In this document: in pieces, positions 15,027-40,864 of the stretch
How the letters are laid out: each line of letters starts with the position of its first letter
Numbering within the stretch: position 1 is the stretch's first letter
Made by a program: the position numbers and the translations under genes
The notes under the pieces: model-generated
Seen by the model: only the letters and a program-made list of their open reading frames with translations
What the model was told of the DNA's origin: nothing
Databases searched by the model: none
Assembly (NCBI GenBank): GCA_022457155.1
Contig: JAJGOT010000466.1
Coordinates: forward strand, 310,001 to 374,000
Origin: Cladopsammia gracilis
Lineage: Eukaryota > Cnidaria > Anthozoa > Scleractinia > Dendrophylliidae
Length of the DNA stretch: 64,000 nt
Direction: 5' to 3'

Positions 15027-15254
15027 GTGAGTCCTTTCCTAAATCCAATTGCATTGTTATTTGTCAATAATTGTGGCAACTTACTACTTTTATTTTGCAC
15101 ACCGTTTGTGTCGATTCGTTTGAAAAGGGACTAAGATTCTCTAAATTTCAGCTACATTAACCTATGCGTCTTTAAACGAATTGAAAGGCTCATTTAAATT
15201 ATCATAGTTGTTATTTTTAGAGCTTTTATAACCCGATAGCCACCTTCTCCCAAA

Positions 15255-15980: not shown

Positions 15981-16314
15981 AAGAGTTTAGTTTTACATTC
16001 GACCTTATTTTGTAGCTTTCACCTACTTATATATTGCCATAAAAATAGTTTTGTTTTTTTTTTCTAGAAATTTCGTTTTTCAGGGAGGTTTGGATCAATA
16101 CTAACTCATTGAATTAGTACCATCGCACTAGAAATGCCGCGACCACATAGTATATGTACCATGTTTTTGTTTTTAAGTGTGTGTTGTTTTGTATCCACTG
16201 GGGAAAATTTAATTTTTATTCAATCAAACCAAATGAGTACCATTTTTCGCTGCATTTTTCCTAGCTTAAAGCTCTATATTTGCCACTATAGTCTACCAGG
16301 GTAATTTAAGTGTC

Positions 16315-19300: not shown

Positions 19301-20027
19301 CCGAAAATACGAACTGAGCTGTAATTTCCTAACATACATGCAAGTTGTATCTGCAATACCTCAGACCCTCATCATTAAGGCAAGGATAAAATGTCCAGAT
19401 AAAACTATTCTTCTTTCAGAATATGAGTTTCAGCTGTCTAGGGATAATACCATAAATTTACTTAAATTAAAAAACAGGGATTACTACTGGCTTTTGATAA
19501 ATAAGGACAAGCAAGTATTGAAGGCAAGCGTAAAGTGGGAGAGAGATTTACAGTCAGACATGGTGCGGATTGACTCTTTTTTTAGTCGTGTAAAATATAT
19601 TTCTAGAGAAAACAAGCTGAGAGAATTTTACTTCAAACTTTTGCACAGAATAGTTGTTACAAAGAGAGAACTGCATTTATTTGGTACTAAAAATGATATG
19701 CTTTGCATTTACTGTCGAGAAAATGATTCCATTATTCACACTTTTTCTAATTGTCAGTGGTCTAAAGAGTTTTTCTTGGAAGTTATTAAGTGGTTTAACA
19801 AAGAAAATGGCACCTCTTTCTCCTTATCCCCAATGGAAATTCTCTTCGGCACGAACTCCTCCAAGACTGATATGATTACCAATAATTTAAACTGTACCCT
19901 CCTCTTTGCTAAATATTACCTCTATACCCAAAAGCTAGCACAGAAAAATCTATCTTTAGAAGAATTTGTAGTTAAATTAAACTGTCGATCTCATTTAGAA
20001 AAATTCCCTCTGCAATCTAAAACATAA
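16315..20027 (+). CDS. LINE ORF2: AP-like endonuclease and reverse transcriptase (one frameshift)
   Basis: N-terminal endonuclease (EEP) domain: SLNVRGLRN, QEIYSK, GGDWNVAL, SRIDFF and APDHKAI are its catalytic signatures. Reverse transcriptase: NWRPITLLNMDYKI, LLQLDFRKAFDTI, SRGVRQGCPMSP and the catalytic QFADDTTLF. The frame ends at 18672, but the neighbouring frame carries on with IDTIHGIWQSRNLTLFGRCL and a long C-terminal region to 20027, including a zinc-binding CIYCRENDSIIHTFSNC. The break falls in a run of nine A (18626-18634); one more A would join the frames at about 1,240 residues. It nicks target DNA and copies element RNA there. Apart from the frameshift it looks intact, so it may be a young copy or a sequencing error. 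Confidence 0.9.
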
Positions 20028-20251: not shown

Positions 20252-22411
20252 TGCCATGTTTGCATATATCTTAGTGCGTATTCACATATTCTAAAATGTA
20301 TAGAAAAATGCTATTTTGCGTAGTGTTCAGTCGTCTACAAAGCGTTTAAAATTCTTTGAAGTTCAGCTGTATTAAGCAATACGTTACAAACCGAAATGGC
20401 CGGTTTATGATTCAAGAATTTTCCATGGCATGGGGGATAATGAGACAGATAGTTGCACTGCGTATTCCGTATTCGTTATTACGGACACACTGAGGATAAC
20501 ACCCAGGTTTCTGGTGCACAGGTACATGAAGAAGAGGGTACTAAAAACCGAAATCACCCTCAATTGGCAAAGCGGGCACATACGTGGCATACTTACGACT
20601 ATCCTTGCAACCCAACGTGTGGCGGATTTATCCGAGTGAAGACATGATTCAGTGTCGTTTCCATACATGTGTGAACCTGCAGTCAGCCAGTACAGTATGA
20701 TACAACCGCAAGCAGTGTCCTACATGTGTATGTACATGCACCCCCAACAACAGAGCCAATGTTGTGGAACCTAAGCCTAGTTACACCTTACATGTATCCA
20801 AGAGGAGTGTCGTACCAGACGTGTTAAACATTTTCTAGTTTATTCCATTACTGTGGAAGACTTGTTGTAATCTGTTTGTTTAAAAAACAGCAACAACAAC
20901 AGTCATGTTTCGTGTATTTCAAGCATTCAATAGTTTGCATGACTCCACAACTATCCTAAGATAGGCAGCGTAAGACACATTATTGAACATTAGGTATGGA
21001 CAGATAAGAGCTATTCAGTGGCCTGATCGCCACATTATGGTATTTCAAACTTGAATCGGTAAAAGGAAAGCACTTTTAAAAAAATTTCTGTGTTACGTTT
21101 CCCCTGTCACGGATACCATTTCTTTTAAGACTGGGGGAGGCGTAAGGCAGAGGTTGTATCCAATTTAATCATTGTAAAGTAGAGATATTCGCATTTCAGT
21201 GAATTTGCTGTGAGGGCCAATCAGTCAGACGTTCATGGCTGTGAGGGCCTGTATTGTATGTGACCTCACTAAAAACCATGTGCTCGAGAAAGCAATCGGA
21301 AAATGGATATTATAAACAGATTTACCGTATGAAAACTTCGACTAATACATGAGCTTCCTCTTCATCTATACCATTAACACTGGTTGAATTACTTTTTCGT
21401 GCCTTATAGCACCGGAGATAACAAGTGTCGTGCATATCATGACGTATTAACGTCTGAAAAGAACCACGGAGCCTTTTCGAATCATGAAACAACTTGAGGT
21501 CCTAATTCCTGCAGAAGTACTAAATGAAGTTGATATTGGTAATGAAAAGTTTAAAATCAAGGCAAAATTGTAAAAGATCCGGGAGTGTTTCTATTATTTA
21601 GACTACCTTGTCTATATATACATCCACATGTACTCGGTGTAAAAACATAATTTTAAAATAAGTTTTCAATGGAACTAACAGTGGTATCTGAAGTTAACGA
21701 GAGCAGCGACAGATTGGTAACAATTTAAAAGCCCTGTGAGTTTTTTCGGCTAAAACGTCTCTGCATTATGCATATCTCAAAAGTAATTTGAAGCCTTTCC
21801 GATTGCGCGTAACGCAATAATTTCATAAAAACTTTCGGTAAAAGTCTCATTTATATCTCTCTTTACCAGCAATATACAGAGGTATAAACCTTAACGATAG
21901 AGTACGTTTTATGGTTCTTTTCACCCGAGAAACATACACACGCATAAGCACATAGGACTACTAAATTCGATCAAATTTTGATTAAATTAACATTAAGTCG
22001 ACAATCGAGCGATGGAGGGCACCAAAACGGCTCGTTCATTACGCACGCTTGTTTTGTTTCTCAAATTGCATAATTTACATTAGTGTTGTTGATTGTTACA
22101 CGCCTTTTTGCTTTTATACGTAATTCTAGATCTGTATGAATAATGAATAATACATTTGAAACTGCATTTGTACTTTAATTATCGTGTTAAATTTATTTAA
22201 CTTTTGTTACACTTATGCCAGGAGAGAATGCGCATTCTGCTTGGCTTTTAAACTTATAACTGTTTGTTATACTTTGAATCGAGTAATGTAATATTGTTGT
22301 GTTTAAATAATGTCAATTTTAAAAATCTGTGCCACTTTCGCACCACGTGCACTTAAATTCTAGACTGCTTGTTTTTTCTCACTTCTGTTCATTTTCGTTT
22401 TTTCTGTTCTA
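20252..22411. other. Non-coding stretch upstream of the TPR-CHAT body
   Basis: AT-rich; if the leader exon at 13.7 kb belongs to the TPR-CHAT gene this is intron. Open frames near 20405-20668 exist on both strands but show no motif. A pyrimidine-rich tract TTTTCGTTTTTTCTGTTCTAG at its end (to 22411) is a strong splice acceptor. Confidence 0.5.
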
Positions 22412-25400
22412 GAAAAGACTGTCATGGACAACATATACAAGGTTGTACAAGGCATCACTATTGGAATACTGACTGCCAATTTCCTTCTCAGCACCAATTG
22501 TGTTCTAAACGCCATCCAGTTAACAAAAGAATGCTTGAGTCTCCTTAACGCTAAGCCTCTGAAACAAACAACTGAATTAGTCAGATTAATTACCAAATTG
22601 CTATATTCCCTGTTGTTCAAAGGGTACCGTCTTGTTTACGATCATACGAATGCGATAAAATGCGGTAGAAAGCTTCTGGCCTTATTGTGCGACAGTGGCG
22701 AAAAAGCCGAAGAAGGACAAATAACCTTGCAACTAGCGGGATTGTATGAATATCCTGCTAAATATAACGAAGCAAAAGAACTTTATTCGAATGCATCATG
22801 ATAACAACTGGAAAAAGGAAAGGAGAAGCATCCTGTTATGAAAACCTAGGAATGGTGTTTCAGTTTCTCGGTGAATATGCCAAGGCTAAAGAACATCTCG
22901 AAAAATCACTTGCGATCAGAAAAGAAATTGGCGACATCAATGGAGAAGCCTCGTGTTATGCAAACCTGGGAACATTGTTTCAGTCTCTCGGTGAATATGC
23001 CAAGGCTAAAGAACATCTCGAAGAAGCACTTGCGACCAGAAAAGAAATTGGCGACATAAATGGAGAAGCCTCGTGTTATGCAAAGCTAGGAACGGTGTTT
23101 GATTCTCTCGGTGAATATGCCAACGCTAAAGAACACCTCGAAAAAGCACTTGTGATCTTAAAAGAAACTGGCGACATAAATGGAGAGGCCTCATGTTATG
23201 CAAACCTAGGAACGGTGTTTCAGTCTCTCGGTGAATATGCCAATGCTAAAGAACATCTCGAAAAAGCACTTGCGATCTTAAAAGAAGTAGGCGACATCAA
23301 TGGAGAAGCCTTGTGTTATGCAAAACTAGGACCAGTATTTCAGTATCTCGGTGTATATGTGAAGGCTAAAGAACATATCGAAAAAGCACTTGCGATCTTT
23401 AAAGAAATTGGCAACACAAATGGAGAAGCCTCGTGTTATGCAAACGTAGGAAAGGTGTTTGAGTCTTTCGGTGAATATGCGAAGGCTATAGAACATCTCG
23501 AAAAATCACTTGCCATCAGAAAAGAAATTGGCGACATATATGGAGAAGACTGGTGTTATGCAAACCTAGGAACGGTTTTTGAGTCTCTCGGTGAATATGC
23601 CAAGGCTAAAGAACATCTCGAAAAATCACTTGCCATCAGAAAAGAAATTAAAAACATTAATGGAGAAGCCTCATCTAATGCAAACCTAGGAACGGTGTTT
23701 CAGTCTCTCGGTGAATATGCCAAGGCTAAAGAACATCTTGAAAAAGCACTTGCGATGAGAAAAGAAGTTGGCGACATAAATGAAGAAGCCTGCTTGTTTG
23801 CAAACCTAGGAACAGTGTCTCAGTCTCTCGGTGAATATGCCAAGGCTAAAGAACATCTCGAAAAAGCACTTGCGATCTTTAAAGAAATTGGCGACATAAA
23901 TGGAGAAGCCTCGTGTTATGCAAACCTAGGAACGGTGTTTGAGTCTCTCAGTGAATATGCCAAGGCTAAAGAACATCTCGAAAAATCACTAGCGATCGGA
24001 AAAGAAATTTGCGACATAAATGGAGAAGCCTCGTGTTATGCAAACCTAGGAACAGTGTTTCAGTCTCTCGGTGAATATGCCAAGGCTAAAGAACATCTCG
24101 AAAAAGCACATGCGATCTTTAAAGAAATTGGCAACACAAATGAAGAATCCTCGTGTTATGCAAACCTAGGAACAGTGTTTCAGTCTCTCGGTGAATATGC
24201 CAAGGCTAAAGAACATTATGAAAAATCACTTGCGATGAGAAAAGAAATTGGCAACATAAATGGAGAAGCCTCGTGTTATGCAAGCCTAGGAACAGTGTTT
24301 CAGTCTCTCGGTGAATATGCCAAGGCCAAAGAACATATCGAAAAAGCCCTCCCGATCTTTAAAGAAATTGGCAACATAAATGGAGAAGCCTCGTGTTATG
24401 CAAGCCTAGGAACAGTGTTTCAGTCTCTCGGTGAATATGCCAACGCTAAAGAACATCTCGAAAAATCACTTGCGATCAGAAAAGAAATTGGCGACACAAA
24501 TGGAGAATCCTGGTGTTATGCAAACCTAGGAACGGTGTTTGATTCTCTCGGTGAATATGCCAAGGGTAAAGAACATCTCGAAAAAGCACTTGCGATCTTT
24601 AAAGAAATTGGCAACACAAATGGAGAAGCCGCGTGTTATCTAAACCTAGGAACGGCGTTTGATTCTCTCGGTGAATATGCCAAGGGTAAAGAACATCTCG
24701 AAATGCACTCTTATTGAATAAAGAGATTGGAAACATTAAAGCTGAAGTAAGAAACCACGCTAACCTTGGATTTGCCATGCTGTTGCATGGAAACATACAT
24801 GGAGCGAAATACCATCTCTTTAACGGCATTCATAAAAGTGAGGAGATGCGCTATTTCCTGGGAAATAATGACCAGTTCAAGATATCGTTGTTTGATTGCT
24901 ACCGGTTGCTAAGTGCATTGTTCTTTTCAACTGGGAAGCCTAATGAAGCTCTCTACACTGTAGAGCTTGGACGAGCCAGAGCCCTGGCAGACTTAATGTT
25001 AGCTCAGTATTCTTTGGAAAAAGAAATATCAGTCAATCCACAGACATGGGTTGGTATTGAAAGGATCATGGATACAGAAAGTAACTGTTCTTGCCTATAC
25101 ATTTCATATGATAAAAGTGCTGTATTTTGTGGATTGTTAAAGCGGACAAACCGATACTTTTTCGGCAAATAGATGTTAATGACTGTTTTGTTAACAAGGG
25201 AAAGGATTTGCAGGTAGAGGAAGTTTTTGGCAACGAAATCTGGAGAAAGTTTCATTTTTTACCTCGAGAGCAATGCGAAGATCGATCATGGTTTTCTTCA
25301 AATGTTACCCACCTATCGTGTAAATCATCTCAGAAAGATAACGGCGAAGCTTTACGCCTGGTGGAAGAAGTGGAAGACGATGACCAGCCACCCGACCCTA

Positions 25401-26281
25401 CTCTTGCTGAGTGTTACAAAATGATCGTCGCTCCTGTGGCTGACTCACTTGATGAAGAAGAAATCATTATTGTTTCTGATCGTTCTTTTTTTCAAAGTCC
25501 CATTCGCAGCGTTAGAGGATGAAAGTGGAAAATTTTTATCAGAGAATTTCAGGATCCGCATTGTTCCTTCTTTGACGGCTCTCAAGCTCTTACAGGAGAG
25601 TCCAACAGACTATCACAGCCAGACTGGCGCACTGATAGTTGGAGACCCTTATGTTGGTGATGTGATTTACAAGGGACGCTGTGAGAGACCAATACCATTG
25701 CCTTGTGCAAAAGAGGAAGCAGAGATGATTGGAGGACTGCTCGGAGTTCAGCCTTTGCTAGGAAAGCAAGCAACTAAACAGGGGGTTCTTCAAAGTATTC
25801 ATTCAGTGAGCCTGATACATTTCGCTGCTCATGGTGATGCCGAAAGAGGAGAAATTGTTCTTTCCCCTCAAAGATCCAACGAAAGCAGGTTTCCACAAGA
25901 AGAAGACTACTTGTTGACAATGACAGACATTTCATAAGTTCGACTGCAAGCCCAACTGGTAGTTCTTAGCTGTTGTCACAGTGCACATGGACATATAAGA
26001 GCCGAGGGAGTTGTTGGAATCGCCCGGGCGTTCTTAGGATCCGGTGCACGCTCAGTGTTGGTGGCCCTGTGGGCCATCGAAGACCTTGCAACAAAGCATT
26101 TTATGATTTGTTTTTACGAGCACCTTGTTCGAGGGGAAAGTGCTAGTGAATCTCTTCACCAGACCATGAAGTGGATGAAAGATAACGGCTTTTCTAAAGT
26201 GCGACAATGGGCGCCATTTATGCTGATTGGAGATAACGTGAAATTTGATTTCCATAAGTTAAGGTTAGTAGAAATTGTTTA
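22412..26281 (+). pseudogene. TPR-CHAT protein gene, interrupted by four frameshifts and one stop
   Basis: The exon follows the acceptor at 22411. The N-terminal segment (KTVMDNIYKVVQGITIGI, helical repeats) runs to 22801. The TPR array occupies 22798-24717, a linker 24714-25172, an acidic linker 25127-25522 and the CHAT domain 25449-26281. CHAT is a caspase-like peptidase fold with a His-Cys dyad: HFAAHG (His codon 25830) and VVLSCCHSA (Cys codons 25971/25974) are present. The joins at ~22800, ~24705, ~25125 and ~25495 each need one base; TAA at 25935-25937 replaces an expected sense codon between His and Cys. TPR-CHAT families are expanded in corals and thought to act in protease-dependent immune or death signalling; that role is inference. 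The final segment runs open to TAA at 26281. Confidence 0.88.
22819..24700 (+). repeat. TPR-coding tandem array, 120-bp unit, about 15.7 copies
   Basis: Every unit is exactly 120 bp (40 residues) with the pattern GEASCYANLGTVFQSLGEYA then KAKEHLEKALAIRKEIGD. There are no indels across nearly 1.9 kb and synonymous positions are largely shared. This argues for recent homogenisation by unequal exchange or gene conversion. Variable positions cluster at a few sites (Q/D/E before SLG, A/S after EK, R/F/L/G after AI), which would lie on the TPR superhelix and may set ligand specificity. Confidence 0.92.
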
Positions 26282-27617: not shown

Positions 27618-27720
27618 AAACACGCCGGGCCAGCAGGCACCACAAGATGGCAATTAGGCGCCCGCTCGTATCACACCTGATTTCAGCGGGTTCCTCACAA
27701 AAAAGGTAAATGTTTACAAA

Positions 27721-28341
27721 ATGGCGGCCGAAGGTGAAATTGGCGCTGCTGTTCGAGCTCTTCGCCCATTGCGTGGTAAGGTAGAAAACTTTGTACAATT
27801 TGAAGAAGAAGTCAAAGAGACCCTTGCCTCGATTTTTGAGAGACACCGTGCTGGACAGAATGTGTTTGGAAGGGTCAGCCGTGCACGAATAGAGGTTGGA
27901 TCTATGATTGAGGTGGAAATTACAATGTGGCTTAAAACTGTGTACCGACGCCTAAAAGCTCGCATGAGAGCTCGAGACCCTTGGACGGTAAGCTTTACAA
28001 GACAAATGCCTGAAGAAAGTTTTCGTTCTATGATGGAAGCTGTTAAAAAGGCTCCCTCTGCGTTTGGAGTATCACATTCAGAAACACATGTAGCGTATAC
28101 CATTTCCTACTCTAAGGAGACCAGACTGTTGCGGGATTTTTCAAAGTTGTGTAAAACATCACGAGAATCTGTCATGTCCTACCTCTGTAAGCAAACCAAA
28201 GCGCCCAGGAAAGGAGATGCCAAGATTGTGGTCAGCACGGTTAAACCTTTTCTTCTGACATATATGAAGAGGAAGCAACATGTGGTGGTCAAGTGTCATT
28301 ATATATTCACCAATGAACACGGATATTCATTTCAAGCTTAA
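27721..28341 (+). CDS. 206-residue protein of unknown function, accessory gene of the CAC-terminated transposon
   Basis: Begins ATGGCGGCCGAAGG 100 bp inside the left terminus and runs uninterrupted to TAA. I do not recognise a domain. The protein is basic, helix-rich at first (MAAEGEIGAAVRALRPLRGK), with RHRAGQNVFGRVSRARIEVG, a central AVKKAPSAFGVSHSETH and a C-terminus with KPFLLTYMKRKQHVVVKCHY. The 5' part recurs at 38945-39142 inside the deletion derivative, next to the same terminus, showing that it belongs to the element. It converges on the transposase gene. A DNA-binding or transposition-helper role is plausible but unproven. An AATAAA occurs downstream near 28909. Confidence 0.6.
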   Translation: MAAEGEIGAAVRALRPLRGKVENFVQFEEEVKETLASIFERHRAGQNVFGRVSRARIEVGSMIEVEITMWLKTVYRRLKARMRARDPWTVSFTRQMPEESFRSMMEAVKKAPSAFGVSHSETHVAYTISYSKETRLLRDFSKLCKTSRESVMSYLCKQTKAPRKGDAKIVVSTVKPFLLTYMKRKQHVVVKCHYIFTNEHGYSFQA

Positions 28342-29250
28342 CGGTGCAATATGCTGTGTAGCTTAATATACTCACTGAAACTGAGTAAAGCTGAAGGTCT
28401 TACTGTTTAGTTTTTCTTTGTGACAAAAATGTTAGGCCCTAATGAATGGTTCAGTTCTTGCTATTGCCAGTCCCAGGATTTTATTTTCACTTTGAGAGAT
28501 TATTTATGTTCAGTAATTCATGAACAAATTCGACAGATTTTGCCACCAAAGTACTCCAAATGACTTGACATTTCTCCACCCCACATTTTTTTACATAAAT
28601 AGGTATTTCGACTCGCCCCATTACCTTGGGACGAGACTGCTCGAAAAATCCCCGGGGCAGCAAAGGCCAATTTTCCCCCGTGTCTTTCCCAGAGGGGTGG
28701 GATGGTAACAGCAAGAATTGAACCATACATAAGAGTTGGGTTCAAACATTTAGGCGGTGTTGTTGTTTTTGCTGCATAAAGAAAATACTGACTAGACAGT
28801 ATTATTACTGAAACAGTTGCTTTTAAGGTTTATGTTTGTTACAGTGATATCAACATGGTAGTAACAATGGTTAAAGATGCATTAACAAGAAGTGTTTTAA
28901 TAAAATGCAAACCATAACTTGGTGACAACTCATTTTTAAAGGAAATGTTCCTCTTACTAAAAGATAACATGGGCCATTTATTTAACCAGTCCAACTTACA
29001 GAATGTGGTTTATGTGAATTTCATGGCACTTTGACACTGTATTTGGGAGAATTGTCAAAGATCAAGAGAACAGGCACGGATCCAGGAAAAACCTTGACCG
29101 TTTTCCTAGACTCTAAGCACTAATATATATTTAAGATTTTCACTCTCTAAAATTGCTGTCCCTCGATTTTGGGTCATTTTTTAACAATCTGACCGATTTA
29201 TGTAAAACAGTGAAACCAGTCTGGATCCATGCCTGGAGACGTTCTCTCCA
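28342..29250. other. Non-coding, 3' of the 206-residue gene
   Basis: No gene recognised. Overlapping minus-strand frames at 28487-28745 look like chance frames. A phrase GGCACGGATCCAGGAAA near 29075 resembles an hAT-like terminus found at 35149 but has no partner nearby. Confidence 0.45.
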
Positions 29251-29252
29251 TA

Positions 29253-29405
29253 GCCCGTTTCACAGATACGGCAGCCATATTGATTTTGCCTCCGCAGGAC
29301 ATCCCATAATGAACATTGAAAACAAAGAAATATATTAATTTAAATGGTCATTATGGGATGCCCTGGGGGCAAAATCAGTATGGCTGCCATATCTGCAAAA
29401 CGAGC
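29253..29405. mobile_element. Tc1/mariner-type MITE, 153 bp
   Basis: Ends GCCCGTTTCACAGATACGGC and (reverse-complemented) GCTCGTTTTGCAGATATGGC form inverted arms of roughly 60 bp. TA lies outside both ends (29251-29252, 29406-29407), the duplication expected of Tc1/mariner elements. Confidence 0.72.
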
Positions 29406-29500
29406 TATGTTAACGTCGGAGAGGCCCTATACACTGATAAGCCTTTCTTAACACAATAATAATTGGATGCACTACCCATGTAAAATGCATATGCAGTAAA

Positions 29501-29968
29501 TCAACATGTGAGTTGTGACAGAACTGTCCCTTGGTCAATACTTTTTTGAATCATATCCATCAAGGGTTCACCACAAAAAGTACACTTGCTTTCCCTAGGA
29601 TCTGCTTTTTCAAGATTACAGTAACAGTACCTGTCATCATGAAAAACCCTACATGGGATGTAAACAGCATTATGTTTGTATGTATTTGGCTCAAATCCCT
29701 GTTCTGAAAGCCAAATCAACATGACAAATTCATGTTTAAAAATTTCAGGCCACCGTCGCTGAAAAGTTGTATTCTCACTGAACTTCTTTAATGCTATGTG
29801 TTTTGCTTCCCTCCCTTCCATGGTCACAGTTTTGTTAATTTCACTTACAAGATTATTGTAAGTAATCAACTTTGGAATGGGGCATTTAGGCATGACACAA
29901 ATACTAGAGGCCCTTGGAAGATGAAATAAAAGCTGATGAGAGCAAGGCCTAAAAACCTTTCCAAGCAA
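29501..29968 (-). pseudogene. Internally deleted copy of the transposase-like gene
   Basis: The minus-strand frame joins the N-terminal motif MPKCPIPKLITYNNLVSEIN directly to VTMEGREAKHIALKKFSEN and the whole C-terminal segment, ending in the zinc-binding-like YCYCNLEKADPRESKCTFCG. In the gene at 31006-33201 these two parts are separated by roughly 430 residues including the presumed catalytic core, so this copy has lost it. The frame is otherwise open. It lies inside a terminus of the same family at 30263, as expected for a non-autonomous derivative. Whether the small fused protein is made, for example as a repressor, is unknown. Confidence 0.75.
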
Positions 29969-30169
29969 TTAAACATCAGAAAATTGAACGCCGTTTGATG
30001 GCTCACAACAATCCTTCGCAACTACCTTCTACACCAGAAAAACGGCCGATAAACTAAGGCATGTTTGGTACCAACAGAAAGCTCAAGGCTTCAGCCATGC
30101 AAAGAAACATGCCATCTGGCCTCTTGGGTATCCCAGCATGCAAGAGGAGTCTTTTTTATAGTAAAGAAA

Positions 30170-30263
30170 GCTAGGTTCCAGTCTCCTCCCGGCAATTTCG
30201 GTTTTGGGCGCCATATTTGAAGACAATTCGATGCCGATTTCTGGCGCCCGCTGACCCGGCGTG
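30170..30263. mobile_element. Right terminus of a diverged relative of the CAC-terminated family
   Basis: Reverse-complemented from 30263 it reads CACGCCGGGTCAGCGGGCGC, then about 70 bp recognisably similar to the end at 40861 (shared GCGCCA, TTCAAA, GAGACTGG). AAA follows at 30264-30266. It is the upstream end for the deleted gene at 29501-29968. The matching left end is either 27621 or lost. Confidence 0.68.
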
Positions 30264-30364
30264 AAACATCGCACAATTTGTGACTATTTTCAGAGTCTCA
30301 CGCAAGCAGATGGATCACTGCCTAGCTAATGTAAACATCAACAGAATGAGCCGCAGCATTACAT

Positions 30365-30604
30365 TGTTTATAATAATTTATGTAAGCATAATACAATACA
30401 ATAATTTATGTAATTTATGTAATAAATTATGTAACTTATGTACAATACAATAATTTATGTAAGGCAACTTAATGGCAACCCTAGTAAATAAATAAATGTA
30501 TGTTTACAATAATTTATGTAAGCATAATACAATACAATAATTTATGTAATAAATTATGTAATTTATGTACAATACAATACAATAATTTATGTAAGGCAAC
30601 TTAA
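30365..30604. repeat. AT-rich tandem duplication, ~130-bp unit
   Basis: Two copies of a segment rich in AATAATTTATGTAAG and AATACAATA words, each ending in GTAAGGCAACTTAATG (near 30460-30476 and 30589-30606), with internal TTTATGTAA iterations. Confidence 0.8.
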
Positions 30605-30606
30605 TG

Positions 30607-31005
30607 TGTTATCTGTTACAAATTTTGGTACATTTCATTAAAATAATTATGAAAGTGAACATTATGGGTCATCATGAATAAATAAATGTATGTCTATTAG
30701 AGCAGTTTTCAACCAAGTGCCAAAAAGCAAACAACAACTTTCATGGTACTAAAAATCCCTGATACATCCCTAATGCCTGCAACAATCAATAACTTTGGTT
30801 TTGATTTCTCCATGGTTTAAGATTGACTGAGTAGTTTAATGGCTAAGTGATTAGATAGGTTTTGGTTTTACAACACTAAATTGAAAACCACTCTAAATAA
30901 ACAAATAAATAAGTGTTTCCCACAACACATTTGAGCCACATATGGCCTACTGCTTTGCAAGCCTACTTATAGTTAAAAAATGAGAAATACTTTTCACATG
31001 CAGGA
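30607..31005. other. Non-coding, 3' side of the transposase-like gene
   Basis: Contains ATAAATAAATG tracts and mirrored phrases AGAGCAGTTTTCAA (~30700) and TTGAAAACCACTCT (~30880), perhaps an old MITE of about 200 bp. No gene seen. Confidence 0.45.
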
Positions 31006-33340
31006 CTATGTGCTGGTTTCGCCTAACAGCTGTGGCAAAACTCTTCCTTGCTCAACACTCTGTTGGATAAATTGCATAATTAGATTACCACAGAATGTAC
31101 ATTTTTCATCAGTGGGACTAGCTTTTTCTAGATTGCAGTAGCAAAACCTTGGGTCAGAAAACACCCTGTCTGGGATGTATACAGCAGTATGCTTGTATGT
31201 ACTAAGGTTGAACCCTTGTTCAGGAAGCCACACTAACATTACAAACTCGTGTTTGAAAATCTCATACCAGCGCCTTTTATAGAATGTGTTTTCGCTTAGT
31301 TTTTTCAAAGCAATGTGTTTAGCCTCCCTCCCTTCCATTGTTACGATACCGAGCCCTTGCCCATATTTCTCATGTAGCTCTTTAGTGTGGGCAGGAATGA
31401 TGTGTCCAATTGTCCACACAGTAGGATTTACAGAGGTAGGGAGAAACAATGCATTCACCCGATAATAGTCACGAGCACTGATGCTCAGTTCTGTAAGCTG
31501 GTCAACAGTAGTATCAAACCTACTGAAGAGTGAGACACAATCCCTTAGTCTCAGTCCTAGGTATGAAAAAATCAGAACTGTTTGCCTTTGTTGGGGAGAA
31601 TCATTTTCACTACTAAGCCATTTAATCAATCTCATAAAATTATGGCAAAGTAGCCTGGAATCTTTTCCAGTAAATCTATACTGGAGATCCTGACCCTTAC
31701 CCTGGGTTTCGTCGTACCACTTCTTTACCTTTCTTGCCAAACATTTGGCCTTTACCTCAAACTGTAGTGCAGTTACAACTCTAGAGAGAATGCTATAATT
31801 GGGAATGTCTGCAAACTTTTTGCAGCTGTCTGGAAGATTTGAATTTCCCACTGCCTCTTTCAGAACCCCCTTAAAAAATACTGCCAGGCATTATTCTTAA
31901 TATGTAAAGGCTCTACATGGGCAAGATCAATCAATTCCCCAATTAAAGGCTCAAATTCTTGGCGACTCTTTTTATGTGCAATAAATTCTGTGACTTTACT
32001 CCGAACTGTTTTCTCCTTAAGTTTTTTCTCAGACAAGGATTTTTTAAATTTGTCAACCTCATTTGCAATTTTGATCCTCTCTTCATACTTCCAAGGCTTC
32101 CACATGGTCTGTGGTGGCCGGATAGTACTTCTCTGTGACAAACTTAAAAATGTCCCCTTTAAGTCAGTGCAGTTGTCTGTTGAAACATCTGCAAAAGTTG
32201 AGAAATATCTTGCACTATTGGTCAGTTCAACCCCCAGCATAGCCAACATCTTCATGTCATTTGGCAATTCGGCACATTTGAAAGTTACATGAAAGCCCTC
32301 AATTTCAAAGACTTTTTTCTCAATCTCACTAATTTCTTTGCACAAGAATTGACAGTACTTGCGCACAACTGGCGAAGTTTCCTCACAATTACCCCCAAAA
32401 ATAATAAAGTTGTCATTGCTTGATGCAACCCTCTTACCAACATTAAGAAAACTTAAGAGAAAGGAACAAGCACTCTCATTCTTCCCAAATGGACAGCCAT
32501 CCCCACCCACTGCAAACAAAAAAGTATCCTCTGTTTTGCCAAACCACTGAAGGGTTTCCTTTTTGCCTTTTCGGAGGTAAAATTTTGCTAAGCGGGGCAA
32601 ATACTCAATTAACTTTCGAAAGCAACCTTGTGTTGTTTCATCTTCCATAACACCTTGAAACTGTTCTTCTAATTTGTAAACATTTCCAATGCTGACTTGG
32701 TTGATTTCTTTGACAAGCTTGCTATAAGGCAACAATTTTGGAATAGGGCACTTTGGCATCAAAGTAATAGCTGACCTCCTGTTTCCCATTGCTTTATTTT
32801 TTTTCATAGATAATGCAAGTCTTACAGACTTATATTTTCGCTTGCCCATTACACCACTACTATAGAAAACTGCAATGCTTCTCTTTGCATTTTCTGGTGA
32901 GCTTTCAAATGCTTTTGAATTTTTCTTAAATTCAGCTGAGACTACCTTCTTTGTTAGGATTTTATGACTTAAAACATAATCTTTCATTTTGTCTACTTTA
33001 CATCTTTTTGCTAAGGTGTCAAACATTCCATCAAAGGCTGGTGTTAGGGTTATTCTCAGAACCTCCATGGATTGTGGAAGCAGTTTTCATTGTTTCTTGC
33101 CGTCTTTTTGATGCTGTTCTTGGTGGCATATTTGATTTGCCATCCACCAAACTAGTTGGGGATCTTGTTCGTGAACTAATATCAGTGTGAACTGGTTGTA
33201 ACTGCAAAGAAAAATACTTCATTACCTTCTTCTGCAGTATGGCACTAAAAAAAATCATCTCATAGTAAGGACATTATACCAACCTGAACATTTTGAGTTT
33301 CACGGGTCAAGTCTCTCAATACTTCCCCTGAATCACTGAC
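31006..33340 (-). CDS. Probable DDE-type transposase of an unrecognised family, exons 2 and 3 (two frameshifts)
   Basis: Exon 2 is 33340-33284 (VSDSGEVLRDLTRETQNVQ) and exon 3 is 33201-31006; with exon 1 at 40381-40226 every junction is phase 0 with AG/GT borders. Motifs in order: MPKCPIPKLLPYSKLVKEIN; FLFAVGGDGCPFGK (candidate first catalytic Asp); FIIFGGNCEETS; LPNDMKMLAMLGVELTNSAR then YFSTFADVS; HVEPLHIKNNAWQYF; SVNPTVWTIGHIIPAH; VTMEGREAKHIALKKLSEN (candidate catalytic Glu); FCYCNLEKASPTDEKCTFCG, a likely zinc site. The Asp...Glu arrangement and E-G-x-E-x4 pattern resemble RAG1/Transib-type RNase H folds, but this is resemblance by eye. Single-base shifts occur near 33030-33060 and in a C5 run at 31866-31870. 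I recall similar uncharacterised proteins as abundant in cnidarian genomes. Not certain to be a transposase. Confidence 0.65.
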
Positions 33341-33631
33341 CTTTAGGTAACAAAAAATGAAATTAATCATTCACTTCCAAAATGTTCATTCCACAAATAA
33401 AACAAAAGCTAACAGCAATTAATTAATAAAATATCATAACTGGCTATTTATAGGTGTAGCATTTTCCAGAAATGATGAACAAATCAGATCAAGTATCTCA
33501 ATACATACATGTAGAAAGAAAAATAAACTGACAGAGTAGCTTGTTTAATGCTAATATCTTCAAGTTAACTACTGTAAAAACTAATTAACTTAAGCTTATT
33601 ATATAACACAAGCAAAATAACTAGCTACCTC
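33341..33631. other. Remaining original intron 1, 3' part
   Basis: AT-rich intronic sequence of the CAC-terminated element between exon 2 and the insertion at 33632. No gene. Confidence 0.5.
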
Positions 33632-34002
33632 CCGACGTAGTCAATCGAACGTTCGGTAATCGAACCCAATTGATCGATTGGGTTCGGTAATCGAACTTAA
33701 TCGAATTCACCGAAAAATTTTGCCAATCGAACGCAATCGAACGTTCGGTAATCAAACGCTTCAACAATCGAACATAAAATTAATCGAAGTCAATCAATCG
33801 AACATAATCGAACACTTCAACAATAATTATTGGAAATAAACTACAGTTCACGCCGGGCTAGCGCACGCCACAAAGCTGCATTGCAATGTTTTCAAAAATG
33901 ACGGGCCCATTCTCGTCCCCAGAGCCGCTTGGCCCTCTTAACCGCCGGAACCTGAGTACGAGAGCCAAGGGGCTCTGGGGACGCAGGATTTGATTGGCTA
34001 GT

Positions 34003-35148
34003 TTCAAAACAATAAAATCTAAAACGGAAGTAAAAAATTTGGATAAGTTGCCGGGAATCGAGTTGCAGAATTCGGCCAAGAAATGTAACTTGCCTTTATA
34101 AACTGTCAGAAGGTGTTGGCTTGGGACGCTTATACTTGGGAATCACTATGATGATTTTCAACGACAAAGACTGCGTGTTTCAAATGCCAGATTTTGTTAG
34201 TTAGAGCAAGATTCCTTTGGCTGAGCGTAGCCAACATGGCCTGGTCAACAAAACTTCACCGTCCCTCCAGGAATTATCAATTACAGCCAGTGTCCGGAGA
34301 AAATATTTTGTGGATCAGAACATATCAGTGAATCGCCTGAGCTGATCACGCAGCAGTTCACGACGAGTAACAAGCAGCTGCATCGCGTTATTCGCGGGTC
34401 TGGTTTACTAACTGTGGCATGTGCATTTATAAATATAAAAGGTACTGGATTATTTCTACCAAAATCCACATTTCGTGATAAAATATGTCACCCTTTTTGA
34501 ATTCCAGTATATTACGTGTAGCTGTTCATTTATGGGTATTATATCTGGCTTCACAATTTCATTACATTCCTTTATAAACGATTGTGTACTGCACTGCATT
34601 TTAGATAACATTCCTTAACCATCATGATCAGGGATGGACCTGTCTTGTGACCCTTTAATTCCACTGTATTATTACGAAAGTGAAATAAACGTTATGATGG
34701 TTCACTTCACTTTTCTAATTAATTTGTTGTTTTTATAACAAAGTGATCCATATATGTGCAATTTTTTATTGTTTATTTTTTATGAAAAATATAATTTGGG
34801 CAGTTATCATATTCAATGGTTTCACATTAGGGCTTCCAAGTATATCCTAAGTGCCCTTGAAACCAAGTTTGAATGTGAAAGAGTAAAATGCACATGCTTG
34901 AACCCTACTTTGTGATCATGGAAATGTGTCTGGTTATGTCTGGTAGTATGCAAAGGAAATCCATTGCAAGTACTCTTCTAGTTTCCTTGCCTTTCCTTTC
35001 ACATCAATCCCAGTAACTGACTGTTTGTAACAGGCTAACAGAATGCTGATCAGGACATGTGGTGCCGCTATCTGCCAAGTTGTTTTCTGCTACAGAAACT
35101 GGCTATGTGGGCCATACATGTATGTGTTTTGGGGGAAATAGTTTAAAA
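34003..35148. other. Non-coding interior of the Mutator-like element
   Basis: No recognised gene; frames of 60-73 codons only. It could be captured genomic sequence, since Mutator-like elements often carry it, but I cannot identify a source. Confidence 0.4.
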
Positions 35149-35849
35149 CAGGGGCGGATCCAGGAATTTCTGAAAGGGGGGTTTGGGTGCATGCCCCCCG
35201 GAAAACTTTTCCGATTTTACCCTCTAAAACGCCACTTCCAGCATTCCTGTGACTTGAAGTGAAACAACTAGATATAAAACAATTTTATTCTATTATTTTT
35301 AAGAACCATATGGGAGACACAGGTCTGGTAGGGGAGGGGGGTCCAGACTCCCCCGACCCTCCCCCTGGATCTGCCACTGTAAAATACCCTTGTTTGGTAA
35401 TGAGGACAAATAGTTGTTGGTGTACCAACTACTCTTGCTTGTTTTCTTAGAATAAAAAAAGCCCAGCCTTTTTTAATGGTGCTTTATGCATCCAGCATAC
35501 TAAGTATTTCCACATTGACAAATTGTCTGTGAAACTGCTAACACAGTTGTACATGGATACCCTCCATGCCTGGCCCAAATTCAGATGACGAGGCTTACTA
35601 ATCTCATACTGGCACCAATAAAAGACATGCTTTACTCGGATGTCATCTGAATTTAAATATGCAAGTTCAGTCTGAAACATTTGCCTCTTTAATATTTGTT
35701 TTAAAATCCAGGGACAAATACAGAGGGGAGATTTCTTTAGACTGTCAGTTTTAACAGTTTTCTTTTTAATTGCAACAATGAAAAATTTTGTTGACTTAGG
35801 CAAATACCCATAGCCTGCCCCAATAAAAATAATCCTGGATCCGCCTCTG
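35149..35849. mobile_element. hAT-like element with CAGGGGCGGATCC ends, 701 bp
   Basis: Left end CAGGGGCGGATCCAGGAATT and right end (reverse-complemented) CAGAGGCGGATCCAGGATTA are inverted repeats of the type seen on many animal hAT elements. The 8 bp on either side (GTTTAAAA and AAATCATT) do not match, so no TSD supports it. A 118-codon minus-strand frame (35447-35803, with KHVFYWCQYEISKPRHLNL) is inside; I recognise no domain. A related terminus occurs at about 52089. Confidence 0.5.
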
Positions 35850-37497
35850 AAATCATTATGACAGTGCTACCTCATGTAGCACAAGAACAGATAGATGATT
35901 TCCAGTTCCTGGTAGGTTGCCTGGGGGAGGGGAGTACTTCCCTTCCGCCGGATGGGGTCGTATTTTCACAACTGGATTGACTATAATGGGGTTACATTTT
36001 CAACAGAGTATGGCGTCGCACATTTTCTGGATTTTTGGAGTAAGAAAATTCTGGCAATTTTCTTTTTTTTTTTTCAGGGGGGGATAGTTTTATTCTAGTA
36101 TGGATTTGGGGGATTAAAAACATAAAGTGACTAAGTTTGGATCACAAAGTTTACATTTTCACAAAAGTGACAAATATGGGTCTATAATTGGCCACATAAT
36201 AGACTATTTAATAATTGGATTTAGCTCGAGATTTCTATCTTGTGATACTTGATGAGTTGTTATCGAATAGCAACGACCACTGACAACCGCACATACTCAC
36301 TTTCTACAACAGGTTAGATAGTAAGTAGCGTAGCCAAAAATTATAAGAGAACAGCATTCCTGATAGAACGCTAGTAGATTTATACTAAAATGGAGTAGGC
36401 GCTCTGAGAGGCCAGCAGCACATACCCTGGCAGTGGAAGTTGATCCATGCCCCCTCCCCCCCGGGTATGTTGGCATTAGTTCATATACAAACTTTTACTG
36501 ACAGGAGTTTTGAGGATTAAATATTAACAAGGTTCTTTAAAAATATCTGAAGATGATGTTGGATCTTGTTATCTATCTTGAAAGCCTGTCATCTCTGCAG
36601 AGGCTCAAATGGAGTTTGTGGAAAGGGAGAATCTGTTGAGCGAAGCAAGTGCATGCGCAAAGGAACCAAGAAGACAGATGCTGGAGCTTAATCAGTCTTC
36701 ATGTCTTTTGCATCTGTACACATCTTGTTTATCTAAATCACCCTAATCCCTCTGAGCTGATGAGGAGATGTTCTTAAGCCCCCCCCCCCCCCCCCCCCCA
36801 AAAAAAAATATATGTTTACAGAAACAGAGAACAGTGGCCTTCAGCAGGCAAATTTAATACAGTGATAAGAAGTGACATATTTCAGTAGCAGTAAAATATA
36901 TCACTGATTGATTCACCTGCAAGCTTCTTTGACTTTTGGGATACTTGAAGATCTCCCTTGACCATTGCAATAACAGTGGAAATGCTCTGCCTGAGCAAAG
37001 AAGTCCTAGGTAGATGCTAAGAGTGATTTTATTTGAAGAGTTGCGCAGAATGCCACAACACATTTTTCAACATTTCATAATATATAATTTTAACTCTCTT
37101 TATTTTTTTCCCTGTTCTGTCTTAGATGAATTCAAAATGTCTGGCTAAGCTTGTATAAAAGGGAAATATTGTACAAGTTTGAAATGTCCAAAAGATGCCA
37201 TTAGTGAAGTCAAAGATTTGTGTATTAAAACACCATTGATATGTGGCCGTAACTAGTAACATTAAATAATTTACATATCATTGTCAGCACCTGCACATAT
37301 ATAAATCTGATTGAAATCCACCTTCACATTTCAAATAGACTCCTACGACAGCCCAGAAATTTCGAAATGTAGTCTTAAATTATTATCTATACCTTGACTT
37401 CTGGATGCAAAAATCTCGGAATCGGCCAGACTAGCCATAAATTGATGACAAGATTAAAAATAAGCTGATCCAGTGGATAAGCCAAAAATCCTCCAAC
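35850..37497. other. Non-coding interior of the Mutator-like element
   Basis: Contains a C20 tract followed by A8 at about 36780-36807 and G/C-rich patches near 36455. No gene recognised. Confidence 0.45.
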
Positions 37498-37499
37498 TA

Positions 37500-38297
37500 C
37501 AGTCGGACCTCTATTAAGCGGCCACCTATTAAGCGGCCACCCTCCATTAAGCGGCCACTTTCCAAAGTCCCGAATTATTTGTCAGTAAAGTGCTGTATTC
37601 GATACCTCTATTTAACGGCCACCTCTATTAAGCGGCCGCGGCCACCTTTTTGAGGTTGCAAGTTTAGTATTTCTTGTATTTTTACCTCTATTAAGCGGCC
37701 AGCAAATCATCTTTTCAAGCGAAATGGTGACAGATAATACGAAGGTGATAACTGATAACAATAAAAACTGCAATTTAGTCTCCACTTGCCCAGTTTCACG
37801 GTTACCAGGACCTTGCCCTATCTATCGGAAAGGCAAATGACTTGATCTTCTCGTTACAACCGGCAAACAGCAGTGACGGATTATTTTAAATAAATCGTCC
37901 GTGAAATATTTTGAGCTAAAATTTTTACAGACTGTTGGTGCAAAAAAGGCCTAAGAAATTTGATGTTTTGTTACATAGATTTGCATATCTTTCTGTACCT
38001 ACTCAACACCAAAAAATACTGTACTTATCGACTACATGCTCTCTGTGTTAGAGCTAGAACTTTGCACGGACTTGAAATGCGCAAATACAGGGCACTTAAT
38101 TTTTTGTTTCAATGACTTTTGCATTTATCTTCACATATGTTCACTTTTCAACAAGCCTTTTGCTATATAGAGGCAATAAATTTACCTTGACTGCCATTTC
38201 TATCCAATTTATATTGTACCTCTATTAAACGGCCAACCTCTATTAAGCGGTCAGTTTTCAAAGTCCCGAGGGTGGCCGCTTAATAGAGGTCCGACTG
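37500..38297. mobile_element. pogo/Tigger-like MITE, 798 bp
   Basis: Perfect 27-bp terminal inverted repeats starting CAGTCGGACCTCTATTAAGC, with TA on both sides (37498-37499, 38298-38299). CAGT starts and TA duplication fit the pogo branch of Tc1/mariner. The motif CTATTAAGCGGCCA is repeated several times inside each end. No transposase is encoded. Confidence 0.85.
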
Positions 38298-38618
38298 TAT
38301 CAGATCACGATGATTGTTACCATATTCACGACTCGGAAACTGCCGAAAGTTTACCGATAGCATCTAACTACACCTCGCGAAAGATAGACGTCCAACTTCT
38401 GAAATGAAACAGCCAGAATCCTGCCTTTTCTTGCACCGTGTTCTTTATATTGAAGGCACGTCCGCCATTTTGAAAAAACTTTGAGCATGAGCAGAACCAA
38501 CCGGAAGTCCAGATTCTAGCCAATCAAATCCTGCGTCCCAAGAGCCCCTTGGCTCTCGTACTCAGGTTCCGGCGGTTAAGAGGGCCAAGCGGCTCTGGGG
38601 ACGAGAATGTGACGGGCC

Positions 38619-38944
38619 GAATTCGGAATTTCCGAGAGAAGACTGGGGACGAGTAAGGTTTGGTATAAATAACGGGTCCTCACGCCTTCTGGGAAATCTG
38701 TTCTGCTTCATTCACAACAAAAAATGGTAGCTTGTTCTTTTAGCTTTCAGAAGATACCAAACACATGCCATCGCAGAGAGTCCGTCCTTCGATAGCAAAA
38801 CCAGTGACTTCTTCGGTCTAATGGCGTAGGTTTTCTCGACATTACAAAGGTAAGTTTTTGGCTCCGAAAGAATTTAACAGTTTTCCAAACAACAGCATTT
38901 GAAATAATTTTTTTAAATCTTTAAAGCATAGAGAAGAATCGTAT
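38619..38944 (+). promoter_or_regulatory. Retained promoter and 5' leader of the transposase gene in the deletion derivative
   Basis: Inverted copy of 40477-40802. It keeps the TATA box (GGTATAAATAACGGG), the 5'UTR exon and its donor AAAGGTAAGTTTTT, and ends at the deletion junction 38944/38945 with the shared word GAATCGTAT. Transcription from it would run into antisense of the truncated accessory gene. Confidence 0.7.
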
Positions 38945-39142
38945 ATCCACCTCAATCATAGATCCAACCTCTATTCGTGCACGGCTGACCCTTCCAAACA
39001 CATTCTGTCCAGCACGGTGTCTCTCAAAAATCGAGGCAAGGGTCTCTTTGACTTCTTCTTCAAATTGTACAAAGTTTTCTACCTTACCACGCAATGGGCG
39101 AAGAGCTCGAACAGCAGCCCCAATTTCACCTTCGGCCGCCAT
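38945..39142 (-). pseudogene. 5' fragment of the 206-residue accessory gene
   Basis: The first about 65 codons (MAAEGEIGAAVRALRPLRGK to ARIEVGSMIEV) repeat those of the gene at 27721, then switch at the deletion junction. The frame runs on 8 codons (DIRFFSML) into the other half before stopping. Confidence 0.85.
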
Positions 39143-39245
39143 TTTGTAAACATTTACCTTTTTTGTGAGGAACCCGCTAAAATCAGGTGTGATACGAGCG
39201 GGCGCCTAATTGCCATCTTGTGGTGCCTGCTGGCCCGGCGTGGTT

Positions 39246-39589
39246 TCATTTGGTCTGAAAAAAAGCATTGTGGTCAAATAAGTTATTAATTGAACTGGTG
39301 ACTGTGCTCAGTATGGTGGCTGATGGAAAAAGTTGTTAGTCTCATTCACGCTAACATGAAGCACTCGCTGATATGTACAAAGGTCTGATAAAATTTCCTT
39401 GTTTATGGTCTAAGGTTTGTGACTGATAGCCCCAAAGATGATCCGAGAGGAAGATGGAGGCCTGGTGGCAGAACTAATGTTCCAGTGAGCAAGGGTAGAA
39501 ACGAAGCCGCTTTCAAAAACTCAAGCCAATTTAAGGTCGACACTACTTGAATCGCAATAAAGATTTTAGTTAATTGAAATGTGTTAATA
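39246..39589. other. Non-coding interior of the 8-bp-TSD element
   Basis: No gene seen. Confidence 0.4.
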
Positions 39590-39762
39590 GAGCGTATGCA
39601 CATGACGTCACGGCGGCCATATTGGTGTACCAAAACAATAGAACGGCGGCCATGTTGGTGTACCAAAACAATCCTGTGGGATTTGAACGCTTTTCTTATG
39701 TTAACACTTTCTTTTGTTCCAATAAATTTGCATAGCTGCTTGCCACGTGAGTGCATACGCTC
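39590..39762. mobile_element. TA-flanked MITE, 173 bp
   Basis: Ends GAGCGTATGCAC are inverted at both sides, with TA outside (39588-39589, 39763-39764). The interior duplicates GGCGGCCATRTTGGTGTACC. Similar GGCGGCCAT phrases occur inverted at 41648-41720. Confidence 0.7.
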
Positions 39763-40225
39763 TATATCTCTCACAATTGCTCCTCTAGTAAAAAATCGGT
39801 TAAAGAGTGTAATTCTACTGAGACTGAATGCTTATCAATTTTTGATTACCGTTTTTTTCCCTGACCGAACAAAATCGAACCAATCGCATCGATTGAGTTT
39901 GATTGTGTTCAGTAATCGAAATTAATCCAATTCACCGAAAAGTTCAAATTCGATTTTGTTTGAGTGCTGAACCAATCAAACTCCAATCGAACGATTGAGT
40001 TCGATTGGGTTCGATTGGTTTTTGGTTTGGATTCGTTCAATTGACTACATTGGGCTACCTCAATAACTAACTACATGTAAATCTATCAATTTAAGCCACA
40101 ACACAACACAGCACAGAATATCTTGTTGCTTATTACCAGCATGTATCAGTATTTTATCAGTTAACTATATAAGTTAATATAACTCAATAATTACATGAAA
40201 GTCCTCACTGACTGGCCTAACTAAC

Positions 40226-40381
40226 CTTTGATTTTAGTCTATTAATTTTCCTCGTGTTTGAGCTAAGCTCTGCCTTCAAACTTCTACACTGTTCTGACTG
40301 TTCCACTGCTGTCTGCCTCGCTTCCTTTCGGGCCTTCATAAAGGCATTAACATCGAAGCGACTGTTCTTAGTGTGTGGCAT
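40226..40381 (-). CDS. First coding exon of the transposase-like gene
   Basis: ATG at 40381; 52 codons, MPHTKNSRFDVNAFMKARKE... ending NTRKINRLKSK at donor G|GTTAGT (40226/40225). Charged and probably coiled coil. Preceded by an acceptor TATTGCACTAG at about 40400, and by a 5'UTR exon ending at 40572 with donor AAAG|GTAAGT. Phase 0 matches exon 2 at 33340. Intron 1 is about 6.9 kb, nearly all of it the insertion 33632-40053; the original intron would have been roughly 450 bp. Confidence 0.62.
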
Positions 40382-40750
40382 AATGCTACAAGTTCACCTA
40401 GTGCAATACACAAGACACTGTTATGCGTTTAACCCGGGTATTCACATATAAGCTAAAATTCAGCAAAACAAAAACGATACGATTCTTCTCTATGCTTTAA
40501 AGATTTAAAAAAATTCTTTCAAATGCTGTTGTTTGGAAAACTGTTAAATTCTTTCGGAGCCAAAAACTTACCTTTGTAATGTCGAGAAAACCTACGCCAT
40601 TAGACCGAAGAAGTCACTGGTTTTGCTATCGAAGGACGGACTCTCTGCGATGGCATGTGTTTGGTATCTTCTGAAAGCTAAAAGAACAAGCTACCATTTT
40701 TTGTTGTGAATGAAGCAGAACAGATTTCCCAGAAGGCGTGAGGACCCGTT

Positions 40751-40757
40751 ATTTATA
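40751..40757 (-). promoter_or_regulatory. TATA box of the transposase-like gene
   Basis: On the minus strand GGTATAAATAACGGG lies about 105 bp inside the right terminus at 40861 and upstream of a 5'UTR exon with a consensus donor at 40572. The same promoter is kept in the deletion derivative (near 38663). Confidence 0.55.
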
Positions 40758-40864
40758 CCAAACCTTACTTGTCCCCAGTCTTCTCTCGGAAATTCCGAAT
40801 TCGGCCCGTCATTTTTGAAAACATTGCAATGCAGCTTTGTGGCGCGCGCTAGCCCGGCGTGAAA

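What the first reader, a model, noticed from the sequence alone, without database searches (positions are those of the whole stretch)
27621..40861. Convergent two-gene transposon with CAC ends and an unfamiliar probable DDE transposase
Seen: one end type leads to a 206-codon gene, the other to a TATA box, a spliced 5' leader and a three-exon gene with all-phase-0 junctions. A deletion derivative in the same window (33849-39242) keeps just these two end types. Family knowledge: CAC termini and short TSDs occur in CACTA/Mirage/Chapaev, Transib/RAG-like and Academ elements. Inference: the large protein has an Asp motif (VGGDG) and a late EGREAKHIALKKL motif in an order like RAG1/Transib, plus a C-terminal Cys4 site; gene convergence also parallels RAG-like transposons. 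It could be a distinct or poorly described superfamily.
Basis: partly seen in the sequence, partly recalled or inferred. Interest (0 to 1): 0.85.

Follow-up and report, generated by a model that had tools for sequence, protein, structure and literature searches.

The report
Coral jumping gene with RAG1-like transposase
This is a two-gene DNA transposon, with relatives in corals and sea anemones, whose transposase is predicted to have the same fold as the core of RAG1, the enzyme that assembles antibody genes, but with a different partner gene and without a zinc-binding cysteine pair of RAG1.

The parts
27621..40861 (.). whole composite element (about 7.8 kb plus a nested 5.4-kb insertion in intron 1)
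   Evidence: terminal repeats and flanking AAA; copy on another contig with a different flank at the ORF1-side end
27618..27620 (+). target site duplication AAA, left
   Evidence: 3-bp TSDs in 7 of 7 copies of a related subfamily
40862..40864 (+). target site duplication AAA, right
27621..27645 (+). terminal inverted repeat, accessory-gene end
40837..40861 (-). terminal inverted repeat, transposase end
27721..28341 (+). accessory gene (ORF1), 206 codons; homologues carry the label PF26709 in the protein database
   Evidence: 47 homologues; homologues at the same place in two further lineages
40748..40759 (-). TATA box of the transposase gene (GGTATAAATAAC)
40226..40381 (-). transposase exon 1, coiled-coil-like N-terminus (by eye), 52 codons
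33284..33340 (-). transposase exon 2, 19 codons
   Evidence: GT-AG, phase 0; support is weaker than for exon 1 (absent from the Desmophyllum model)
31006..33201 (-). transposase exon 3, RAG1-fold core; two frameshifts in this copy
33849..39242 (.). internal deletion derivative (about 683 bp) inserted in intron 1, TSD GTT, itself interrupted by another transposon
33908..38609 (.). unrelated nested transposon, 94-bp inverted repeats, 9-bp TSD TGACGGGCC; absent from the C1197 copy
29501..29968 (-). degenerate C-terminal fragment of a second transposase subfamily (70% to the window's own gene at DNA level)

Best explanation
A cut-and-paste DNA transposon of an anthozoan genome. Gene 2 encodes a DDE transposase with the predicted fold of the RAG1/Transib core: DNA-binding N-terminal part, RNase H fold with D241 and D322 (P0001 numbering), a long all-helical insertion, then E638 and a C-terminal Cys4 site. 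It would bind the CACG ends, cut 5' of the CAC and join to staggered target positions 3 bp apart, giving 3-bp TSDs. Gene 1, convergent from the other end, encodes a conserved accessory protein that probably acts with the transposase on the ends, a role like that of RAG2 but by a protein without RAG2 domains. Shown: ends, TSDs, many copies, recent spread, conserved acidic residues, conserved gene pair. Predicted: fold. Inferred: residue-level match of the active site to RAG1, cleavage chemistry, role of gene 1, anthozoan host.
Against: No sequence-level link to RAG1: hhalign of 140 members against mouse RAG1 594-980 scored 21.2, within 20 shuffles (11.7-28.7); PF12940 finds 7 places in this genome, none among the 63 listed matches of this family. 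The window copy is frame-shifted. In the compact lineage d only 2 of 5 copies have 3-bp TSDs; 3 of 5 fit only 2 bp. The ORF1 structure model failed (pLDDT 39.8), so its function is unknown. The 12-kb lineage carries a second, internal ORF1-like gene, which a simple two-gene scheme does not explain. In the C1197 copy the transposase-side end was not found where expected.
Confidence: 0.85

Rival explanations
1. It is a divergent member of an already named CMC lineage (Chapaev/Chapaev3 or EnSpm/CACTA) that has lost the C(2)C motif, and may already sit in Repbase under such a name.
For: CAC...GTG ends and 3-4-bp TSDs are Chapaev hallmarks, as are C(2)C, LH and H(4)H (PMC4079192, passages); LH is kept in 40 of 41 rows and H(4)H in 29 of 42. 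No CMC transposase is among the PDB rows shown, so a RAG1-like fold may be common to all of them.
Against: [quoted passage not shown] No member of A1 matches the Pfam models of Chapaev, Mirage or CACTA at E <= 0.1 (whether this Pfam copy holds all three models was not checked). Chapaev3 makes TWA TSDs (PMC4079192); of the seven TSDs here (TTA, GGA, TTC, GTA, TGA, TTC, ATC) 1 of 7 fits.
Confidence: 0.35
2. It is a RAGL/Transib element proper, i.e. a RAG1-RAG2 type transposon.
For: Predicted fold, convergent genes, CAC ends; RAGL pairs are reported from cnidarians (PMC7204232, passages).
Against: 3-bp, not 5-bp, TSDs; no PF12940 match; zinc cysteines absent; ORF1 has no kelch or PHD match in Pfam, five proteins scanned. 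The same genome has separate PF12940 matches.
Confidence: 0.06
3. It is an Academ element (AcademX type, 3-4-bp TSDs).
For: TSD length (PMC10045372, passage).
Against: No XPG nuclease or helicase match in the ORFs that were scanned; not all ORFs of the 12-kb lineage were scanned. Academ sequences and folds could not be compared here.
Confidence: 0.06
4. The large protein is a conserved host gene and not a transposase.
For: A long conserved protein with homologues in several anthozoans.
Against: 63 matches in one genome, near-identical copies with TSDs at different sites.
Confidence: 0.01

Closest known systems
RAG1-RAG2 / RAGL (ProtoRAG) transposons
   Same: predicted RAG1-core fold, two convergent genes, CAC at the ends, order D-D-LH-E (matched by eye)
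   Different: 3-bp instead of 5-bp TSDs, positions matched to C727/C730 are Ser and Ala/Gly, partner gene without RAG2 domains in Pfam, no detectable sequence similarity
Transib (HzTransib)
   Different: 5-bp TSDs in Transib; Transib is a one-gene element (recalled); no PF12940 match
Chapaev / Chapaev3 (CMC)
   Same: CAC...GTG ends, 3-4-bp TSDs, LH and often H(4)H
   Different: no C(2)C, no PF06918 match, 1 of 7 TSDs fits TWA; no conserved N-terminal Cys/His cluster such as the Chapa domain would need (before residue 230 only H52 and C158 pass 75%)
EnSpm/CACTA, Plavaka, ESTA, Lanisha (CMCT clade)
   Same: CA...TG ends in most cases, 2-5-bp TSDs (PMC12730594 passages); CACTA elements can have a second gene (recalled)
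   Different: all are reported to share C(2)C, absent here; no PF02992 match

Membership tests
RAGL / Transib | RAG1-core fold | tested here: met
   predicted model only
RAGL / Transib | 5-bp TSD | tested here: not met
   3 bp in 7 of 7; definition from PMC7204232 passages
RAGL / Transib | C(2)C zinc pair (C727, C730) | tested here: not met
   0 of 42 and 0 of 162; positions matched by spacing are Ser 41 of 41 and Ala/Gly 41 of 41
RAGL / Transib | match to the RAG1 profile PF12940 | tested here: not met
   0 of 42; 7 genome places, none among the family's listed matches
RAGL | RAG2-like partner (kelch, PHD) | tested here: inconclusive
   no Pfam match for five ORF1 proteins, but no usable fold
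Chapaev / CMC | CAC...GTG ends and 3-4-bp TSD | tested here: met
   lineage d is mixed, 2 of 5 with 3 bp
Chapaev / CMC | C(2)C motif between D2 and E | tested here: not met
   tested from D2 to LH, the stretch that holds it in RAG1: 0 of 42 and 0 of 162
Chapaev / CMC | LH motif | tested here: met
   40 of 41
Chapaev / CMC | H(4)H motif | tested here: inconclusive
   29 of 42, 106 of 159
Chapaev / CMC | Pfam PF06918, PF06869 or PF02992 | tested here: inconclusive
   none in 42 members at E <= 0.1, but presence of the three models in this Pfam copy was not checked and the genome searches with two of them did not complete; meaning of the models from PMC3985635 passage
Chapaev / CMC | position in a tree with Repbase CMC proteins | not testable with these tools
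   Repbase is not held
Academ | helicase or XPG-type nuclease domain | tested here: inconclusive
   no Pfam match in scanned ORFs; definition from one passage of PMC10045372 and recall

The most novel reading that the evidence does not exclude
A superfamily-level sister of Transib/RAG and CMC: a RAG1-fold transposase that does without the C(2)C zinc pair and carries a C-terminal Cys4 site, paired since before the split of its lineages with its own convergent accessory gene. It would be a second, independent case of the RAG1 plus convergent partner layout, recently or still jumping in corals.
Probability: 0.45. Interest if true: 0.78.

Novelty: new variant of a known kind. Interest (0 to 1): 0.62.

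Why it matters
How RAG1 came to depend on a partner protein, and how the RAG1 fold spread among transposons, is argued from few lineages. A recently active two-gene element (4.65 kb in its compact form) with the same predicted core fold but a different partner and no C(2)C gives an outgroup for asking which parts of RAG1 are needed for transposition, and whether a convergent partner gene evolved more than once. It also marks a family in anthozoan genomes whose transposases carried no Pfam label in the lists seen.

Tried and rejected
Host gene and chance TIRs were rejected by copy number and TSDs. Sequence-level proof of RAG1 homology was sought with hmmsearch of PDB sequences (0 matches), hhalign with A1 (not significant) and hhalign with 140 rows against 20 shuffles (not above shuffles). 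Relatives in other collections: none in viral contigs (patterns from P0001) or genome contigs (59 pattern matches, none confirmed). ORF1 structure: failed. Motif, locus and accession words in 5.39 million papers: 0 papers; a further search for anthozoan, EnSpm- or RAG1-related new superfamilies listed 7 papers, none of which is this by title and start of abstract. Searches were broader literature searches, seen as listings only apart from the papers whose passages I cite. In the VIA-align list no CMC or Academ structure appears, which shows nothing about them.

Genome searches for Chapaev (PF06918) and CACTA (PF02992) profiles, for ORF1 and for the terminal 100-120 bp did not complete, so the number of ORF1 copies and their distance to transposase copies genome-wide is not known.
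Full report
What is in the window. The element runs from 27621 to 40861. Both ends begin CACGCCGGGC and are imperfect inverted repeats for about 25 bp, flanked by AAA on each side. From the left end, 100 bp in, starts an uninterrupted 206-codon gene on the + strand. From the right end, on the - strand, come a TATA box 102 bp in and three exons with GT-AG borders and phase-0 joints. The third exon of this copy changes frame twice, so this copy should not make the full protein. Intron 1 carries a deletion derivative of the same element (33849-39242, TSD GTT). That derivative is about 683 bp long and is itself split by an unrelated transposon with 94-bp inverted repeats and a 9-bp TSD. A second copy on contig C1197, matching the window at 98.2-98.6% in its two main blocks, has the derivative at the same intron site without that split. 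Its accessory-gene end has a different flank from the window, so the two copies are separate insertions; its other end was not found where expected.

Relatives. A read-through of the broken protein found 245 proteins among the 7,995 candidates that were scored; the 120 listed go from 94% to 40% identity, none with a Pfam label. The closest, P0001, is open over 743 residues. A second search with eight divergent members gave 229, 120 listed. All organism names shown in these lists are anthozoans: Nematostella, Desmophyllum, Dendronephthya, Exaiptasia, Acropora, Porites, Actinia; for the small gene, Pocillopora. Nothing related was confirmed in the viral or prokaryotic collections. The 42 members of alignment A1 show 20 Pfam matches at E <= 0.1, each in one member only; the strongest, HECT and CUE, presumably come from the long Dendronephthya gene model P0089.

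Residues. By eye, the order matches: GGDG to CDG, PNDMK to GYDEK, PLH..NNA to ALH..GNA, H612/H617 to H937/H942, EGRE to EGNE. From D322 the match needs no gap to put S341 and A344 on C727 and C730. In A1 these are Ser in 41 of 41 and Ala or Gly in 41 of 41 rows with letters. No C-x2-C lies between D2 and LH in 42 of 42 or in 162 of 162 (of 180 proteins over 400 residues, the other 18 lacked an anchor motif). H(4)H is kept in 29 of 42 and 106 of 159. A Cys4 pattern after the core is found in 147 of 159. The residue match is inference; sequence methods give no support, since hhalign with 140 members scored 21.2 against RAG1 while 20 shuffles scored 11.7-28.7.

Mobility. In the window's genome (877.8 Mb, 1,469 contigs) P0001 finds 63 matches, a lower bound in which one copy can fill several rows. 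Seven copies of a 46%-identical subfamily were compared end to end. They are 11,963-11,975 bp long; the other six are 99.7-99.9% identical to the first, their alignments stop at the ends, and they begin CACGGTGGGCAC and end GTGCCCACCGTG. All 7 have exact 3-bp TSDs: TTA, GGA, TTC, GTA, TGA, TTC, ATC. A compact third lineage of 4,653 bp (818-codon transposase frame without introns) has 3-bp TSDs in 2 of 5 copies (CTA, TCA) and fits only 2 bp in the other 3 (TT, TA, TA); for a sixth copy the right end was not in the stretch fetched.

The partner gene. In both further lineages a small gene (217 or 257 codons stop to stop) starts just inside the end opposite the transposase and points towards it. 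A profile of 12 window-type proteins, run against only these and the window's own ORF1 (four proteins), gives E 3.7e-19 and 4e-14; a further ORF1-like gene inside the 12-kb element gives 8.8e-14. With transposases only 42-46% identical to P0001, the pair looks old. No Pfam model in the library fits; the protein database labels the homologues PF26709, which the local Pfam scan did not report and whose name I could not see. The structure model failed.

Mechanism. Shown are the ends, the TSDs, the recent spread and the conserved acidic residues. Predicted is the fold. Inferred is a cut at the CAC border by the RNase H site and insertion with a 3-bp stagger. The partner most likely helps the transposase at the ends; RAG2 is the nearest parallel in layout, but nothing here shows the same function.

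Place among known kinds. Transib/RAGL is not met on TSD length (5 bp; PMC7204232, passages), zinc cysteines and profile. PF12940 rings at 7 places in this genome, none of them among the 63 matches, a control that RAG1-type sequences are present and distinct; 5 of the 7 contain stops. Chapaev is met on ends, TSD and LH, not on C(2)C (PMC4079192 and PMC12730594, passages). [quoted passage not shown] Hence I call it a new variant of a known kind: a CMC/Transib-like transposon lineage with a RAG1 fold and without that motif. It may prove a separate superfamily, or may be in Repbase under some name; I could not search Repbase.

Noticed in passing
33908-38609: Nested transposon with 94-bp inverted repeats (98.9% alike) and a 9-bp TSD TGACGGGCC, of unidentified family; the longest listed ORF inside is 139 codons (stop to stop).
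   Followed up: partly
37498-38299: Inside it, a short element with 29-bp exact inverted ends built on GACCTCTATTAAGCGGCC repeats, resembling pogo/Tigger-type MITEs (recalled).
   Followed up: no
29501-30266: Degenerate remnant of another subfamily: C-terminal transposase fragment with an apparent internal deletion, and a terminus-like stretch near 30264 similar to the transposase-side end (76.7%).
   Followed up: partly
29249-29409: 161-bp imperfect palindrome (79.8%), MITE-like.
   Followed up: no
15240-20027: LINE-type ORFs with endonuclease and reverse transcriptase look (recalled motifs), in overlapping frames.
   Followed up: no
22364-25937: Run of overlapping ORFs, one with many tetratricopeptide repeats (Pfam TPR_12 E 1.8e-121); the downstream part looks CHAT-like (recalled).
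   Followed up: partly
33640-33830 and 39850-40050: Clusters of AATCGAAC-type repeats on both sides of the deletion derivative in intron 1.
   Followed up: no
12-kb relative (copy c9, from L021-L022), element position 2867-3550: A second, internal ORF1-like gene besides the terminal one.
   Followed up: partly
G000 C964, C409, C1305, C1421, C263: Seven matches to the RAG1 profile PF12940 in the same genome, 5 of 7 with stops inside: separate RAG1/Transib-type sequences.
   Followed up: no
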